From: Bacilli bacterium
Lineage (GTDB): Bacteria > Bacillota_I > Bacilli_A > RFN20 > CAG-826
Direction: 5' to 3'
NCBI GenBank assembly: GCA_024407995.1
Contig: JAKSVL010000003.1
Span: 1 to 34,988, forward strand
Length of the DNA stretch: 34,988 nt
The position numbers and the translations under genes are program-made. Below are positions 24,906 to 34,773 of the stretch, piece after piece (position 1 is the first letter of the stretch; every line of letters begins with the position of its first letter). The notes under the pieces were generated by a model. That model ran no database searches. It was not told the origin of the DNA and saw only the letters and a program-made list of their open reading frames with translations.

Positions 24906-26588
24906 TTAGGCTTTTGCAACGTAACCAGGAACGAAGATTTCACGGATATGTTCAAGTGTGGATTTTTCAATACCGAAGCTCATTAAGTGGTTTTCCATCT
25001 TATCTGCAAATGTTGAACCATCACAAGCTTTTGTCTTTTCTAACCATTTTGGGAATTCAGCATCACTTTCGGTATATTTAACTGTTCTACCTTGAGTGAA
25101 TTGTGTCCAGAGGTAATCTCTAATCATATCTTCTTCATTCATACCTAATAAGGCTTCTAAGAAGAATGTGGTGATACCAGTTCTATCAGCACCATATGTG
25201 CAGTGCAACATAGCAGGCGCTGTATCACAGTTAGCTAATGTATCAAAGATGATTTTATATTGTGCGGCAATATCAGTTCCTTGATAAGAGCCACCTTCCC
25301 AACGTACTGGTTCGGAACCAGATGGGACGGCTGCACCAACGAATGTCACTGGCCAATCATTACTATTAGCAGCGGAGACATTACCTTGTGGGAAGTTATA
25401 GCTATCTCTCATGTCGATATCAACTTTAATGCCGAGTTCTTTAATAGCAGCTTTGCCTAAACCAGCGGTATCCAATTTAGAAGTTGTGTTGCCACCGCGG
25501 CCAGCATCGAGTTGAGCGCAACGGAAATATAAACCTTGATTAATCTTGGCGCCTGGAACTAATGTTGATTCCCAACCACCAATATCACGGAAGTTAAGAA
25601 TGTTTGGAACATTCACAACACGTGGTGCTAAATCAGTTGAAGTGATATTTTTAACTTCGGCACTAGCTAGAGCGCTTTCACTTGTGGCGGCTCTATAGTA
25701 ATACTTTGTGCTTAATTTAGCGTTTTGGAACATATAGTACTTGTTAGTAGATTCTCTAACGGTAGCATTGGCTAATGCTGCTTCGCTTTCAGCAACTTGG
25801 AAATAATATTTGCTAGCATCTTCAAGTTCCTCGTATCTTAATTTCATACCTCTTGGAGCGGATAAATCGGCACCAGTTGCGTATGTCTTATATTTGAGTT
25901 CATCTTCATCCATCAAATACTTATATTGTTGTAAGTTATGGAAATCATTATCTGGAATATCGTCTTCAGTAATTGTGCTTGGATCTACTGGAACGATGCT
26001 GGCATCAGTTGTTTTGAATTGAATGTAGTCAATACTGGCAAGAGATACTGGGGCTTCATCCTTAACAGTGATAGAAACGTTATAAGTACCTGGATATAAG
26101 TCTTGAGATTCATATGGTAATAAATCCCAAATTGTCGCGCTACTACGAGCAGCTAATGTTCCCTTACCTTCTGCGAATGAAAGTGGTGAAACCGTTTCAA
26201 TGTTGTAATGATAAACTTTGGACATGTCAAGTGCTTTAGCGATATCGCTTTCAACTTGAGCATATGCGGCAGAGATCACAACCTTAGAGAATTTCTTTAA
26301 TTCAAAGCTAAATTTTGCTTCCGCAGCAGAACCTGAAGCTGCAGCAGCAACATATTTACCACCAGAGGCATTAGCTTCTTCGATGATATTGTCATCATAA
26401 GATTCATCGGCTTCCCAACCTGATAAGTCGAAATCTTCAGCTTCCATTTTAAGAGTACCAAAATCTTCGATAACGATTTTGCTCTTATCATTGTTTTGTT
26501 TGGATGAGCCGTTGCCACCTTGGCCACTGCCACAACCTGTTAAACATGCTACAACTAACAATGAGAGTAGAATATTTTGTTTTTTCAT
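24906..26588 (-). CDS. Secreted lipoprotein with CBM6-like, Fn3-like and tyrosine phosphatase domains
   Basis: A 560-residue surface lipoprotein. The signal peptide ends at lipobox LTGC (Cys19) and is followed by a Gly/Ser/Asn linker. Residues about 35-180 look like a carbohydrate-binding module of the CBM6/35 kind (KMEAEDFDLSGW, then ASGGKYV, and a final DYIQF strand). About 215-300 is a fibronectin type III-like pair of strands. The catalytic domain starts near NFRDIGGW (about 331-338) and has the phosphatase loop HCTYGADRTG (Cys463, Arg469), matching the tyrosine/serine phosphatase family with the NFRDIGG signature. The start is the ATG at 26588, preceded by GGAGAC; an ATG 18 bases upstream is inside a hairpin and would put charged residues before the signal. 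A paralogue is at 31424-32572. The substrate (phosphoprotein or other phosphoester outside the cell) is unknown. Confidence 0.85.
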   Translation of the reverse strand: MKKQNILLSLLVVACLTGCGSGQGGNGSSKQNNDKSKIVIEDFGTLKMEAEDFDLSGWEADESYDDNIIEEANASGGKYVAAAASGSAAEAKFSFELKKFSKVVISAAYAQVESDIAKALDMSKVYHYNIETVSPLSFAEGKGTLAARSSATIWDLLPYESQDLYPGTYNVSITVKDEAPVSLASIDYIQFKTTDASIVPVDPSTITEDDIPDNDFHNLQQYKYLMDEDELKYKTYATGADLSAPRGMKLRYEELEDASKYYFQVAESEAALANATVRESTNKYYMFQNAKLSTKYYYRAATSESALASAEVKNITSTDLAPRVVNVPNILNFRDIGGWESTLVPGAKINQGLYFRCAQLDAGRGGNTTSKLDTAGLGKAAIKELGIKVDIDMRDSYNFPQGNVSAANSNDWPVTFVGAAVPSGSEPVRWEGGSYQGTDIAAQYKIIFDTLANCDTAPAMLHCTYGADRTGITTFFLEALLGMNEEDMIRDYLWTQFTQGRTVKYTESDAEFPKWLEKTKACDGSTFADKMENHLMSFGIEKSTLEHIREIFVPGYVAKA

Positions 26589-26598
26589 AAAGTCTCCT

Positions 26599-26613
26599 CG
26601 ATTCATAGAATCG
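26599..26613 (-). promoter_or_regulatory. Dyad directly before the ribosome site of the lipoprotein gene
   Basis: CGATTCATAGAATCG has perfect 6-base arms around ATA. In the mRNA it forms a hairpin ending just before AGGAGAC of the gene at 24906-26588. It may be an operator, an mRNA stabiliser, or a block to the alternative ATG at 26606 that lies within it. Confidence 0.4.
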
Positions 26614-26852
26614 TATTATTGCGTATTAGAATAACACATTTGTTACGTATGTATACATATGCGTTTCCTAAGTTATAAATATAGTATACGCATATGCCCG
26701 TTAGTTGCACAAATAAAAATGAATATTAGGCTAAAAAAATTATGTTATTTCGTTAAAAAGTAGATGTATTTTTGGCATTTTTTTGGCCATTTTTCATTAG
26801 TAATTTTGGCTATGATACACCAGGTATCGTGTGTATAAAAATAATTTTTTTA
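26614..26852. other. Non-coding upstream region between lipoprotein gene and rpsL
   Basis: This AT-rich part of a 408-base gap has no supported gene on either strand. It contains a 12-base dyad TATGTATACATA (26648-26659), an inverted repeat CATATGCGT (26656-26664) with ACGCATATG (26688-26696), several T runs, and the first copy of an 18-base dyad repeat. The promoter of the minus-strand lipoprotein gene should be here, but I cannot choose between weak candidates. Confidence 0.5.
26814..26831 (+). repeat. 18-base dyad repeat, copy 1, upstream of the rpsL promoter
   Basis: GATACACCAGGTATCGTG; GATAC and GTATC form a hairpin or dyad around ACCAG. An identical copy is at 26942-26959, 128 bases downstream. 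This copy lies before the predicted rpsL promoter. Confidence 0.75.
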
Positions 26853-31423: not shown

Positions 31424-32572
31424 ATGAAAAAAGTTTTGCTCTCATTATTAGCCGTTGTGCCGCTAGTATCTTGTACTACGGCATCAATCCCTACAATAAA
31501 TCAATTAAAAGTGGCTTCTAAAGGCCATTTTAGCGATGCACAGTTAAATTATCTTTCTAGCGATAATTACACCGATACGACCCCATATAATGGCAATATG
31601 TCGGTATCTAAACCTTTGCCTATTAATATTTCATGGGAAAATTTAGAAAATAAAGCATATAAGATCGAAATATATCATGATCAATCATGTAATGATTCTT
31701 CATTAATTACCTCCTACGTCGTAGAAGGAAATGCTTTTGATTTTTATAATCCAGAATTTAATAAAGAATATTATGTCAAAGTAGTTTCTAAAGAGAACGA
31801 AAAAATCACCGCTCAAAGCGAGGCGGTTTCTTTCAAAGAAATTCCAGCTGTACCAGGTCCAAGAAATCTTTTTGTGGACGGCGTTGAAAACTTCCGTGAT
31901 ATTGGTGGTTGGGGTAAATTTGTTAACAATCAATATCAAACATATATGAAGCAAGGAATGCTTTATCGTTCTGGTCGTTTTAATGCAGACTCGGTAGAGC
32001 AAGTCAATGTCACGATTACTAATAACGGATTACAAGAAATCAATAATCATTTAAAAATTAAAACTGAAATTGATTTAAGAAGAACTTCCACGAATGAAGT
32101 TGGTGCTTTAACTAATAAATCTCCTTTAGGAGATAATGTGAATTATATTCAAATACCAATGGCTTTCGGTGGTAAAAACATTCTAACGTTCAAAGGCACT
32201 TTGAGTAATGATTCATATCAATATGATAATCCAAGCGCAATCAAAAACTTCTTTGAAGTACTCGCTAATGAAAATAATTATCCAATCAATTTTCATTGTT
32301 CTATTGGTAAAGATAGAACAGGCTGCATGGCTTATCTCATTGAAGGTTTGTTAGGCTTCAGTGAAAAGGATATGTGCCGGGATTATATGTTCACCAATTT
32401 TGCCGATGCTGGAATGTGCAAAATCAGCGATATTAATGATCGCTATGGTGATACTATTTCCAAATATGAAAACGGCAACACAATTAATGAAAAAATATAC
32501 AATTATTTAAACGAAGTTATCGGTGTATCTAAAGATAATCTCGATAAAATCATTAATATTTTAAAAGCATAA
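31424..32572 (+). CDS. Secreted lipoprotein with tyrosine phosphatase domain
   Basis: A 382-residue surface lipoprotein, shorter paralogue of the protein at 24906-26588. The signal peptide ends at lipobox LVSC (Cys17). Residues about 45-140 form a fibronectin type III-like domain (INISWENLENKAYKIEIY to KEYYVKVVSK). The catalytic domain runs from NFRDIGGW (about 155-162), through LYRSGR and IDLRR, to the phosphatase loop HCSIGKDRTG (Cys292, Arg298). The C-terminal 80 residues match the paralogue (LLGFSEKDMCRDY against LLGMNEEDMIRDY). The CBM-like domain of the paralogue is missing. TAGGAA precedes the ATG; the only nearby promoter candidate (TTTCAA 31381, TATATT 31403) is weak. It starts an operon with two RDD proteins. 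The substrate is unknown. Confidence 0.85.
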   Translation: MKKVLLSLLAVVPLVSCTTASIPTINQLKVASKGHFSDAQLNYLSSDNYTDTTPYNGNMSVSKPLPINISWENLENKAYKIEIYHDQSCNDSSLITSYVVEGNAFDFYNPEFNKEYYVKVVSKENEKITAQSEAVSFKEIPAVPGPRNLFVDGVENFRDIGGWGKFVNNQYQTYMKQGMLYRSGRFNADSVEQVNVTITNNGLQEINNHLKIKTEIDLRRTSTNEVGALTNKSPLGDNVNYIQIPMAFGGKNILTFKGTLSNDSYQYDNPSAIKNFFEVLANENNYPINFHCSIGKDRTGCMAYLIEGLLGFSEKDMCRDYMFTNFADAGMCKISDINDRYGDTISKYENGNTINEKIYNYLNEVIGVSKDNLDKIINILKA

Positions 32573-32573
32573 A

Positions 32574-33707
32574 ATGGAAGAAAATAAAGATAACATCATT
32601 GAAATTAGACCAGTTAGTAAATGGAAAAGGTTTCTCGCTTTCTTAGCGGACTTCTTTATTGCGTTTATTATCGCTTTTACTTTATTTAATTTAGCAACTT
32701 TTCCTTTAGCGAAGCTTATTTTTAATACACAAAAACAAAGTGAACAGGCTTTGGTACTAGAAAGAAAAGCCACCAACTTATTAATTAATGATGGCTATTT
32801 ATATTCGCCTGCAATGGATGCTTCGTTTGAAGATGATGTGAACTATACGTTTAAAGTGTTTTTGTCTTATTACGCTTTTGATGAAGAAACTCCAGAATCC
32901 ACTAAAGCGCAATTTGGTCACAAGATAGAAAATGAAGTAATTTTGAAATATTACAAAAATGTGATAAAAGACACAGATTTATATATAAACGACTTTAAAG
33001 AGATCAATCAAGAAGATGAAATGTTTGAAATCGGCAGTACTCTTGATGAAATCACTTTAAAAAGTGATTATAAGACCATATTAGCAAACGAACTATTAGA
33101 AGTAGTGAATGAAGATAAATATAGTGCCACAATGACCAATTTTAGAGATCATGTTTTTGCTAAACTATTCTATTTAAAAGTTTATGACCATATTCTTACT
33201 AATGATTATGTTGCTGATGGCGTTTCGTTTAAAGAGTGTTTAGAAGAGTCTAGAGACATTATGCGCTCGCTCCAATGGATTGCCACTGGAACAGCTTTAT
33301 TTACAACTTTATTAGCGTGGGCTATTTGCTTTGTTATATATCCTTTAATTAATAAAGATCATAAAACTATTGGATTAAGTGCAATGCATATTTCAAAGTT
33401 GAACTATCGCACCCTTGGACCAATCAGTCGTGGTAGTGTGATGATTCAATCATTTTATCAATTTGTGTTCTTGTTAAGTGGCAATTTATTCTTACCTATT
33501 TTGTTCTTTGGAATGTCTTATATATTTAACCTTCCTTTGCTATTTGTTTTAAGTTTAATTTCGTTTATCTTAATTCTTGTTTCAGGTCTATTTATTATCA
33601 CTAGTGGATATAACCGTAGTGGTGCTGATATATTAACAAATATCGTTTTGCTTCCTGATAGTGAAATCGATATGATGTATAGAGTTGAGGTCGATCATGG
33701 AGAATAA
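32574..33707 (+). CDS. RDD-family membrane protein with large extracytoplasmic insertion
   Basis: A 377-residue membrane protein. The N-terminal RDD-type segment KWKRFLAFLADFFIAFIIAF contains the conserved Arg19 and Asp26 within the first helix. A soluble, charged region of about 180 residues (roughly 50-230) follows and is predicted outside. Two or three further helices start near SLQWIATGTALFTTLL, and the family-like cytoplasmic stretch KTIGLSAMHISKLNYR leads to the last helices. RDD proteins are mostly uncharacterised; some are ion antiporters or transport-related. The ATG is 1 base after the phosphatase stop with no ribosome site, so it depends on translation from upstream. The next gene is a paralogue overlapping by 11 bases. 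Confidence 0.75.
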   Translation: MEENKDNIIEIRPVSKWKRFLAFLADFFIAFIIAFTLFNLATFPLAKLIFNTQKQSEQALVLERKATNLLINDGYLYSPAMDASFEDDVNYTFKVFLSYYAFDEETPESTKAQFGHKIENEVILKYYKNVIKDTDLYINDFKEINQEDEMFEIGSTLDEITLKSDYKTILANELLEVVNEDKYSATMTNFRDHVFAKLFYLKVYDHILTNDYVADGVSFKECLEESRDIMRSLQWIATGTALFTTLLAWAICFVIYPLINKDHKTIGLSAMHISKLNYRTLGPISRGSVMIQSFYQFVFLLSGNLFLPILFFGMSYIFNLPLLFVLSLISFILILVSGLFIITSGYNRSGADILTNIVLLPDSEIDMMYRVEVDHGE

Positions 33708-34773
33708 TCAAAAAGAAATTGAAAGGAACGAAGTAGTTAATGTCAATTACGCTCAGCCTAAATTCTGGCATCGTGTGATGGCAAACTTTGTTGACTTCTT
33801 TTTATTCATTCTTCTTTTTCTTTCTGCCTTCATCGGTATGCGTACGATAGCTTTGAACATTCCTTCCTATCAAGCGGTAGAGAAAAAGATAAATGATATA
33901 CAAATAGCGTCAGGTATGTATGTTAAAGATCCTAACGATTCTAGCAAAAATATTGATACCGTGTATTATTTAGACCGCTACGTTAGTCTTTATGGTAATG
34001 AATTTGATGGTGTAGGAGAAGATGGAGGAGCGCCAACTGGTAAAATTGGTATCATTGTTTCTTCTATTAATAAGTTAATTAATTATTGCGGTGATGAATC
34101 GGTCACTCCAAAAGAGAGATATTTAGAGCTTGTTAGCTACTATGATAACATGCGTTTAGAAGCGATAACTGATGACGGTGTCCATTATTTTGTTAAAGAT
34201 GGCGAAAATATCATCCCTAATGAAACACTCGCAGGATCTGCAGAAAAAAGACAACTTTATTACAAAAATGTCTATGTTCCTATTGTCGAAAAAAGATGTA
34301 TCCCATTTTTGGAAAGCAACGTGACTGAATATCGCGAATCTTATCGCACTGAATTTAATTATTTGGTTTTCTTTGAGCTACCAGTATCATATGTTATTGC
34401 CGCTATTCTTGTTTACTATATTCCACCTTTAATTATGAGAAGAGGCAGGATGACATTAGGCAAAGCACTCTATCGAATTGGCCTTGTTGATGATCGTGTT
34501 TTATCACCAACTTTCTGGCGCTTTACTGTACGTTTTCTTATCTTATTAGTTGGTGAATTTATCCTTTCATTATTCACATTTGGTTTACCCTTCATTATCT
34601 CATTCTCGCTAATGGCGTTTTCTAAGAAAAAACAAGGCTTCCCAGATTACATGCTTCACCTATATGAAATCGATGCATCTAAGGCAAATATCTATATGGA
34701 TTATGTTGAAGCCGCTCTTAAAAATGAGCTTCATGGTGATGCCGTTGACTTCTCAATGGAAAAGCCATTATAA
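33697..34773 (+). CDS. Second RDD-family membrane protein with large insertion
   Basis: A 358-residue paralogue in layout of the preceding gene. The first helix is PKFWHRVMANFVDFFLFILL (conserved Arg26, Asp33). An extracytoplasmic region of about 170 residues follows (roughly 50-220). A helix near YLVFFELPVSYVIAAILVYY comes next, then the RDD-type stretch RMTLGKALYRIGLVDDR, two more helices, and the family-like end KKQGFPDYMLHLYEID. The ATG at 33697 is preferred over one at 33685 because GAGG (33687-33690) lies 6 bases before it. It overlaps the previous gene by 11 bases. Function unknown; two subunits of one membrane complex is a reasonable guess. No convincing terminator follows. Confidence 0.75.
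   Translation: MENNQKEIERNEVVNVNYAQPKFWHRVMANFVDFFLFILLFLSAFIGMRTIALNIPSYQAVEKKINDIQIASGMYVKDPNDSSKNIDTVYYLDRYVSLYGNEFDGVGEDGGAPTGKIGIIVSSINKLINYCGDESVTPKERYLELVSYYDNMRLEAITDDGVHYFVKDGENIIPNETLAGSAEKRQLYYKNVYVPIVEKRCIPFLESNVTEYRESYRTEFNYLVFFELPVSYVIAAILVYYIPPLIMRRGRMTLGKALYRIGLVDDRVLSPTFWRFTVRFLILLVGEFILSLFTFGLPFIISFSLMAFSKKKQGFPDYMLHLYEIDASKANIYMDYVEAALKNELHGDAVDFSMEKPL

What the first reader, a model, noticed from the sequence alone, without database searches (positions are those of the whole stretch)
24906..26588. Extracytoplasmic tyrosine phosphatase lipoprotein with carbohydrate-binding-like domain
Phosphatases of the NFRDIGG family are usually cytosolic or secreted by pathogens. Here one is anchored outside the cell behind a CBM6-like and an Fn3-like domain, a combination I do not recognise. 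It could act on phosphorylated glycans, teichoic or host molecules at the cell surface.
Basis: partly seen in the sequence, partly recalled or inferred. Interest (0 to 1): 0.6.

Follow-up and report, generated by a model that had tools for sequence, protein, structure and literature searches.

The report
Expanded family of surface phosphatase lipoproteins
A small-genome gut-type bacterium carries one of at least eight related phosphatase enzymes that appear to be tethered outside its cell by a fat anchor, some fitted with extra binding-type modules, so its surface seems equipped to strip phosphate from something not yet known in its surroundings.

Summary
The gene (24906-26588, minus strand) encodes a lipoprotein with lipobox LTGC, an N-terminal beta-rich module, an Fn3-like domain and a PtpB-fold Y_phosphatase3 domain. 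Two full-length orthologues (62-66% identity) show purifying selection. The carbohydrate-binding label for residues ~48-205 is plausible but unproven: no Pfam or PDB profile match and a low-confidence model, whose structural neighbours are often CBM35/CBM36/CBM6 at sub-threshold Z.

This is one of eight such lipoproteins in a 766-kb draft (69% complete). Fourteen of 16 genomes of the genus carry the family, at 2-11 matches each; 61 other relatives average 0.9. The clades differ in P-loop and in added modules. This copy, like most lipoprotein copies sampled, lacks the lysine that defines PtpB-type 'atypical lipid phosphatases' (HCxxGKDR; here HCTYGADR), so phosphoinositides are less likely substrates.

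Most likely role: a tethered ecto-phosphatase acting on phosphate esters in forestomach contents or on partner cells. Secreted Y_phosphatase3 enzymes are already in print. The novelty is the architecture, the P-loop change and the expansion. New variant of a known kind; substrate open.

The parts
24906..26588 (-). CDS of the lipoprotein phosphatase (560 aa from this start; the ORF opens at 26606)
   Evidence: start supported by GGAG at 26594-26597 and by orthologues L062 and L063
26532..26588 (-). signal peptide with lipobox LTGC (Cys25)
   Evidence: sequence; Cys invariant across 8 paralogues
26466..26531 (-). low-complexity linker after the lipid-modified Cys
   Evidence: sequence; pLDDT ~30
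25992..26465 (-). N-terminal beta-rich module, residues ~48-205, jelly-roll / CBM6-CBM35-like by weak evidence
   Evidence: conserved in L062/L063 and in two standalone lipoproteins; weak structural neighbours; no Pfam or PDB profile match
25623..25964 (-). Fn3-like domain, residues 215-328
   Evidence: model block pLDDT 85-97; paralogues match fn3 (2 of 8, best 3.9e-9) and Pur_ac_phosph_N (4 of 8)
24921..25622 (-). Y_phosphatase3 / PtpB-fold catalytic domain, residues 329-562
   Evidence: PF13350 E 3e-21; Z 19.7 to PtpB 1ywf, 19.4 to C. difficile PTP 8dhj
25176..25205 (-). P-loop HCTYGADRTG (Cys469, Asp474, Arg475; Ala473 in place of Lys)
   Evidence: sequence; alignments A1-A3
31424..32572 (+). 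paralogue: 382-aa lipoprotein (lipobox LVSC), Fn3-like + Y_phosphatase3, P-loop HCSIGKDRTG
26656..26696 (.). imperfect inverted repeat (15-nt arms, 87%) upstream of the start; possible operator, not evident in orthologues

Best explanation
It is an ecto-phosphatase. Shown by sequence or model: a lipoprotein signal with lipobox, an N-terminal beta-rich module, an Fn3-like spacer, and a PtpB-fold cysteine phosphatase with Cys469, Asp474 and Arg475 intact. Inferred: it is exported and held on the outer face of the membrane by lipidated Cys25. The N-terminal module docks it on a glycan-like surface. The catalytic domain hydrolyses phosphate monoesters by the usual two-step route (Cys nucleophile, Arg holding phosphate, P-loop Asp as catalytic acid, as argued for the PtpB/Lmo1800 group in PMC3091653). 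With Ala in place of Lys at P-loop position 5, its substrates are more likely singly phosphorylated small molecules, peptides or glycans than phosphoinositides. The genus keeps a set of such enzymes with different P-loops and accessory modules, most simply read as a division of labour for releasing phosphate, or for dephosphorylating nutrients, in ruminant forestomach contents.
For: PF13350 match. PtpB-like fold. Eight lipobox-bearing paralogues in G000. Genus-wide expansion. Purifying selection on the catalytic domain, dN/dS 0.133/0.705 against L062. Clade-specific P-loops and architectures. Nine of the 23 nearest loci (at least 42% identity) come from records whose titles name a ruminant forestomach organ; 10 more carry RUG/RUI codes, which I recall as rumen series. 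Wall-teichoic-type polymerase mostly absent. A secreted relative, Pho16B, is promiscuous and acts on phytate (PMC6409689).
Against: No substrate evidence at all. No neighbouring transporter or phosphate-metabolism gene marks the locus, which lies between plsX and rpsL (gene names from my reading). The fold of the docking module is unproven. At least one related lipoprotein (L117, G004) has a destroyed P-loop yet an intact frame, so binding may matter more than catalysis in part of the family.
Confidence: 0.45

Rival explanations
1. A surface phosphatase that acts on other cells (host epithelium, ciliates or neighbouring bacteria), changing phosphoproteins, phosphoglycans or membrane phosphoinositides, as the pathogen relatives PtpB and Lmo1800 are thought to do.
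For: The fold is closest to M. tuberculosis PtpB and C. difficile PTP; surface tethering and binding-type modules fit contact with other cells; named relatives come mostly from ruminant forestomach records.
Against: The P-loop Lys needed for good phosphoinositide turnover is Ala here (Lys-to-Ala in Lmo1800 and LM1 lost much activity on PI(3,5)P2 and kept 10% on PI(3)P, PMC3091653 passages). The protein is tethered, so it should not reach cytosolic lipids. No secretion system was sought.
Confidence: 0.2
2. One half of an extracellular phosphorylation cycle: CotH-type secreted kinases phosphorylate the bacterium's own surface proteins and these lipoproteins remove the phosphate.
For: CotH (PF08757) is found in 15 of 16 genus genomes, including G000. 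Outside the genus CotH occurs in 10 of 15 genomes with long-frame PF13350 against 16 of 46 without (Fisher p 0.039).
Against: The association is weak, does not correct for shared ancestry, and my sorting into 'surface type' was by frame length and score from a list that was cut off. CotH is also present without the phosphatases (G010). Whether these CotH proteins are secreted, or linked to phosphatase genes, was not tested.
Confidence: 0.12
3. An ordinary PtpB-type atypical lipid phosphatase that happens to be a lipoprotein, acting on phosphoinositides or inositol phosphates.
For: Same Pfam family and fold; secreted member Pho16B degrades phytate; no PTP-like phytase PF14566 in the genus (0 of 16), so this family could fill that place.
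Against: The defining HCXXGKDR Lys is missing in this protein, and Ala, Thr or Gln stands there in 49 of 58 lipobox-bearing domains collected.
Confidence: 0.15
4. Mainly a surface binding protein; catalysis is secondary or moribund.
For: A paralogue-like lipoprotein with a destroyed P-loop persists with an open frame; added modules vary from clade to clade.
Against: The P-loop of this gene is intact, and its catalytic domain is the most conserved part (189 of 228 residues identical to L062 against 77 of 150 for the N-terminal module).
Confidence: 0.08

Closest known systems
MptpB / PtpB of M. tuberculosis and the atypical lipid phosphatases (PMC3091653, passages)
   Same: Fold (Z 19.7), PtpB-type phosphatase domain, P-loop Cys, Asp and Arg
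   Different: No P-loop Lys; lipid-anchored; two added domains, whereas that paper describes ALPs as phosphatase domain only
C. difficile protein tyrosine phosphatase (PDB 8dhi/8dhj)
   Same: Closest solved structure by sequence (E 2.6e-7) and among the closest by fold
   Different: A single ~240-residue domain; no extra domains in the solved chain
Pho16B, secreted soil-metagenome phosphatase with phytase activity (PMC6409689, abstract and passages)
   Same: Exported Y_phosphatase3 enzyme from a non-pathogen setting
   Different: Has the HCXXGKDR motif; the passages seen describe a signal peptide and a PTP domain, no Fn3 or binding module and no lipid anchor
N-terminal Fn3-like domains of purple acid phosphatases (PF16656)
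   Same: Four of 8 paralogues match this profile (best 3.5e-5)
   Different: There it precedes a metallophosphatase, here a cysteine phosphatase; this gene itself gives no match
CBM6 / CBM35 / CBM36 carbohydrate-binding modules
   Same: Beta-rich module; neighbours of the weak model are often of this kind (Z 5.3-6.7)
   Different: No Pfam or PDB profile match; model pLDDT 47

Membership tests
PF13350 Y_phosphatase3 (PTP superfamily) | profile score above the gathering cut-off | tested here: met
   76.9 bits against 22.2
PF13350 Y_phosphatase3 (PTP superfamily) | CX5R P-loop and PtpB-like fold | tested here: met
   HCTYGADRTG; Z 19.7 to 1ywf, 192 residues, rmsd 2.8
Atypical lipid phosphatase (ALP, MptpB type) | HCXXGKDR signature with Lys at position 5 | tested here: not met
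   Ala473 in this gene and in L062/L063
Atypical lipid phosphatase (ALP, MptpB type) | catalytic Asp at P-loop position 6 | tested here: met
   Asp474
Atypical lipid phosphatase (ALP, MptpB type) | phosphatase domain only | tested here: not met
   Fn3-like domain and N-terminal module
Atypical lipid phosphatase (ALP, MptpB type) | phosphoinositide phosphatase activity | not testable with these tools
   needs an assay
Bacterial lipoprotein | type II signal peptide with lipobox | tested here: met
   MKKQNILLSLLVVACLTGC; Cys invariant in 8 of 8 paralogues; read by eye and simple pattern, no SignalP
Fn3-like domain | profile match of the domain before the phosphatase | tested here: inconclusive
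   no match in this protein; fn3 in 2 of 8 and Pur_ac_phosph_N in 4 of 8 aligned paralogues; confident beta model
CBM6/CBM35 | profile match | tested here: inconclusive
   no match even at E 10, but short divergent domains are often missed
CBM6/CBM35 | beta-jelly-roll fold | tested here: inconclusive
   model pLDDT 46.9; neighbours often CBM35/36/6, best Z 6.9 overall
CBM6/CBM35 | carbohydrate binding | not testable with these tools
   needs a glycan array or pull-down
PTP-like phytase (PF14566) | profile match | tested here: not met
   no match in this protein at E 5 or 0.1

The most novel reading that the evidence does not exclude
A reduced-genome rumen lineage displays a diversified array of ecto-phosphatases, each clade with its own P-loop and added modules, that together with secreted CotH-type kinases run a phosphorylation cycle outside the cell, on the bacterium's own surface or on the cells it sits on.
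Probability: 0.1. Interest if true: 0.8.

Novelty: new variant of a known kind. Interest (0 to 1): 0.45.

Why it matters
The PtpB-type phosphatases are studied largely as virulence factors. A lineage that spends eight or more genes of a ~1 Mb genome on surface versions, with the 'lipid-phosphatase' lysine mostly replaced, says the fold has another, ecological use. The natural set of P-loop variants (HCTY/HCTH/HCAN/HCWG/HCYG/HCFG/HCRI/HCSI/HCAI with A, T or K) gives a ready panel for testing how P-loop positions 2, 3 and 5 set substrate choice. It also warns that a match to PF13350 in gut or rumen metagenomes need not mean a cytosolic or virulence phosphatase.

Tried and rejected
Mobile element or defence role: no PADLOC match for this gene or the window paralogue and no mobility genes seen beside it. 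PTP-like phytase: rejected. Teichoic acid trimming: weakened. Shared operator among the eight G000 genes: the only 9-mer found in four or more of the eight upstream stretches was TATGAAAAA, at the start codon. The inverted repeat at 26656-26696 was not evident in the orthologues' upstream DNA, and promoter-like matches were no more than in shuffles (7 against 9.2). Viral and phage collections were not searched. The structural second look at the N-terminal module lists calpain C2-like, Cry toxin and collagenase domains at similar Z, so it cannot single out the CBM fold. Foldseek for that model had no match at E <= 0.001 and was crowded with viral haemagglutinins, as expected of a poor model. 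Literature: searches returned no paper; one search returned 5 listings on other subjects; some searches gave the two papers used plus listings I did not read. So 'not described' rests on this open-access library only. PMC13172010 was opened by a term search only and was irrelevant.

Full report
What is there. The gene at 24906-26588 (-) lies between plsX and rpsL (names from my reading of the translations). The upstream ATG at 26606 is in frame, but GGAG at 26594-26597 and the starts of both orthologues favour 26588. I number residues in the 566-aa frame. MKKQNILLSLLVVACLTGC ends in a lipobox with Cys25. The catalytic domain is Y_phosphatase3 (PF13350, E 3e-21, residues 332-507), the only Pfam family found in the whole protein.

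Structure. With 27 sequences (window and the search for related loci proteins only) AlphaFold2 gave block means of pLDDT mostly 80-98 from ~211 to the end (lowest block 66, at 371-380) and under 60 before that. Foldseek ranked the C. difficile phosphatase 8dhj/8dhi and M. tuberculosis PtpB first; the second look gave Z 19.7 to 1ywf and 19.4 to 8dhj, with a gap to 13.4 for the next family. So the catalytic fold is PtpB-like. The beta domain at 215-328 is Fn3-like: this protein has no Pfam match there, but of the 8 aligned G000 paralogues 2 match fn3 (best 3.9e-9) and 4 match Pur_ac_phosph_N (best 3.5e-5).

The N-terminal module. Residues ~48-205 are conserved at 45-51% in L062 and L063 and at 30-31% (E 1.7e-6, 2.7e-6) in two other lipoproteins of 230-231 aa that carry nothing else. 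No other place in the 16 genus genomes matched at E 0.01; most genus relatives at ~50% identity start matching at residues 201-246, so the module sits in only one branch. Pfam and a profile search of PDB sequences gave no family. A separate model reached only pLDDT 46.9. Its Foldseek list had no E <= 0.001, though CBM6 chains 2cdo/2cdp scored probability 0.97-1.0; the second look listed many CBM35/CBM36/CBM6 modules at Z 5.3-6.7 beside calpain, Cry and collagenase domains. I call it a jelly-roll-like module, carbohydrate binding plausible, unproven.

Real gene. Against L062 dN/dS is 0.133/0.705 over the catalytic domain, 0.274/0.638 over linker plus Fn3 and 0.463/1.174 over the N-terminal module; against L063 0.149/0.865, 0.295/1.416 and 0.527/1.053. 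All three parts are constrained, the catalytic part most.

The expansion. G000 (766 kb, 69% complete) holds 8 PF13350 genes, each with a lipobox, two of them in this window. In 77 relatives PF13350 was found in 46; in the genus 14 of 16, with 2-11 matches in those that have it (matches can split a gene: G000 shows 10 for 8 genes). Mean matches are 6.9 in 16 genus genomes against 0.89 in 61 others, of which the largest has 6. In an even draw from the phylum, 54 of 295 genomes had a match, and apart from G000 none had more than 6 (G277, same family). Two genus genomes, G010 and G012, had none, and G003 only two.

Clades. A tree of 68 catalytic domains, from a hand-chosen set of loci, groups the lipoproteins by P-loop: HCTYGADRT (this gene, L062, L063) beside HCTHGADRT/HCANGADRT, then HCWGGADRT, HCYGGADRT/HCFGGADRT, HCRIGTDRT, HC[AS]IGKDRT, HCSIGTDRT and HC[TL]EGKDRT; the ~260-aa forms without signal peptide stand apart. 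Some deep placements are weakly supported and several rows are long branches. Several clades contain both G000 and other genus species, so they predate those species. Lengths run from ~370 to ~790 aa, with extra N- or C-terminal parts that Pfam does not name. Outside the genus, one genome (G324) has the domain at the end of a 2053-aa protein with List_Bact_rpt repeats.

P-loop. Among the 68, position 5 is Ala 36, Thr 12, Lys 9, Gln 1 in the 58 with a detected lipobox, and Lys 6, Thr 3, Ala 1 in the 10 without; some of those 10 are truncated or may have a signal my pattern missed. The set was gathered with a pattern that demands HC..G.[DG]R, so conservation of Cys and Arg in it is by construction. 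A check of loci that gave nothing turned up L117 (G004), a 506-aa lipoprotein in which the P-loop is replaced (SSSNGCDEVG) in an open frame, and L111, a short frame with FCAAGKDRT. Beresford and colleagues (author name recalled; PMC3091653, passages only) define the atypical lipid phosphatases by HCXXGKDR, show that the Asp is needed for catalysis and that Lys-to-Ala costs much activity on PI(3,5)P2, and state that the family has the phosphatase domain only. This gene fails two of those features and keeps the catalytic ones. It works like a PtpB-fold phosphatase; it should not be filed as an ALP.

Setting. Of 42 loci from named genomes, 23 are at least 42% identical (best segment) to this gene; 9 of those 23 titles name rumen, reticulum or omasum, and 10 more carry RUG/RUI codes (recalled as rumen series); they are deposited as Bacilli, Bacillales, Erysipelotrichaceae, and in one case Lentisphaerae. 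More distant lipoprotein forms appear in records titled Lachnospiraceae (L085) and Victivallales (L086). The window's own organism and source are not named by any search.

Function. Nothing here identifies a substrate. PTP-like phytase is absent from the genus (0 of 16), Glyphos_transf is in 2 of 16 and CotH in 15 of 16. The CotH association outside the genus is weak (10 of 15 against 16 of 46, p 0.039, uncorrected for ancestry). The simplest reading is a set of tethered ecto-phosphatases that strip phosphate from dissolved or surface-bound esters.

Verdict. Observation confirmed; interpretation partly supported; new variant of a known kind.

Noticed in passing
window 31424-32572: Second lipoprotein phosphatase of the same family after tuf, with the Lys-containing P-loop HCSIGKDRTG, followed by two multi-pass membrane proteins that look like RDD-type proteins (32574-34773; name from my reading).
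   Followed up: partly
L117:2390-3910 (-): Paralogue-like lipoprotein of 506 aa whose P-loop is replaced by SSSNGCDEVG while the frame stays open: a probable dead phosphatase.
   Followed up: partly
L143:1571-7729 (+): 2053-aa protein with nine List_Bact_rpt stretches and a C-terminal Y_phosphatase3 domain, in a 0.9-Mb genome of another family; a second frame of ~1900 aa there also matches.
   Followed up: no
G000:C12:25069-26196 and C42:665-1870: CotH-family genes in the same genome; the first holds one in-frame TAA in the matched stretch.
   Followed up: no
L118:1702-2394 and L131:2243-2932: Lipoproteins of ~230 aa made only of the N-terminal module (FEAEN ... NASGGKFV), probably surface binding proteins.
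   Followed up: partly
window 26656-26696: Inverted repeat CATATGCGT.../...ACGCATATG upstream of the gene, a possible operator; not evident upstream of the two orthologues.
   Followed up: partly
L019:4366-6036 (-): Paralogue with P-loop HCRIGTDRT (basic residue at position 2, where PMC3091653 reports Lys in polyphosphoinositide phosphatases) and an extra C-terminal part that Pfam does not name.
   Followed up: partly
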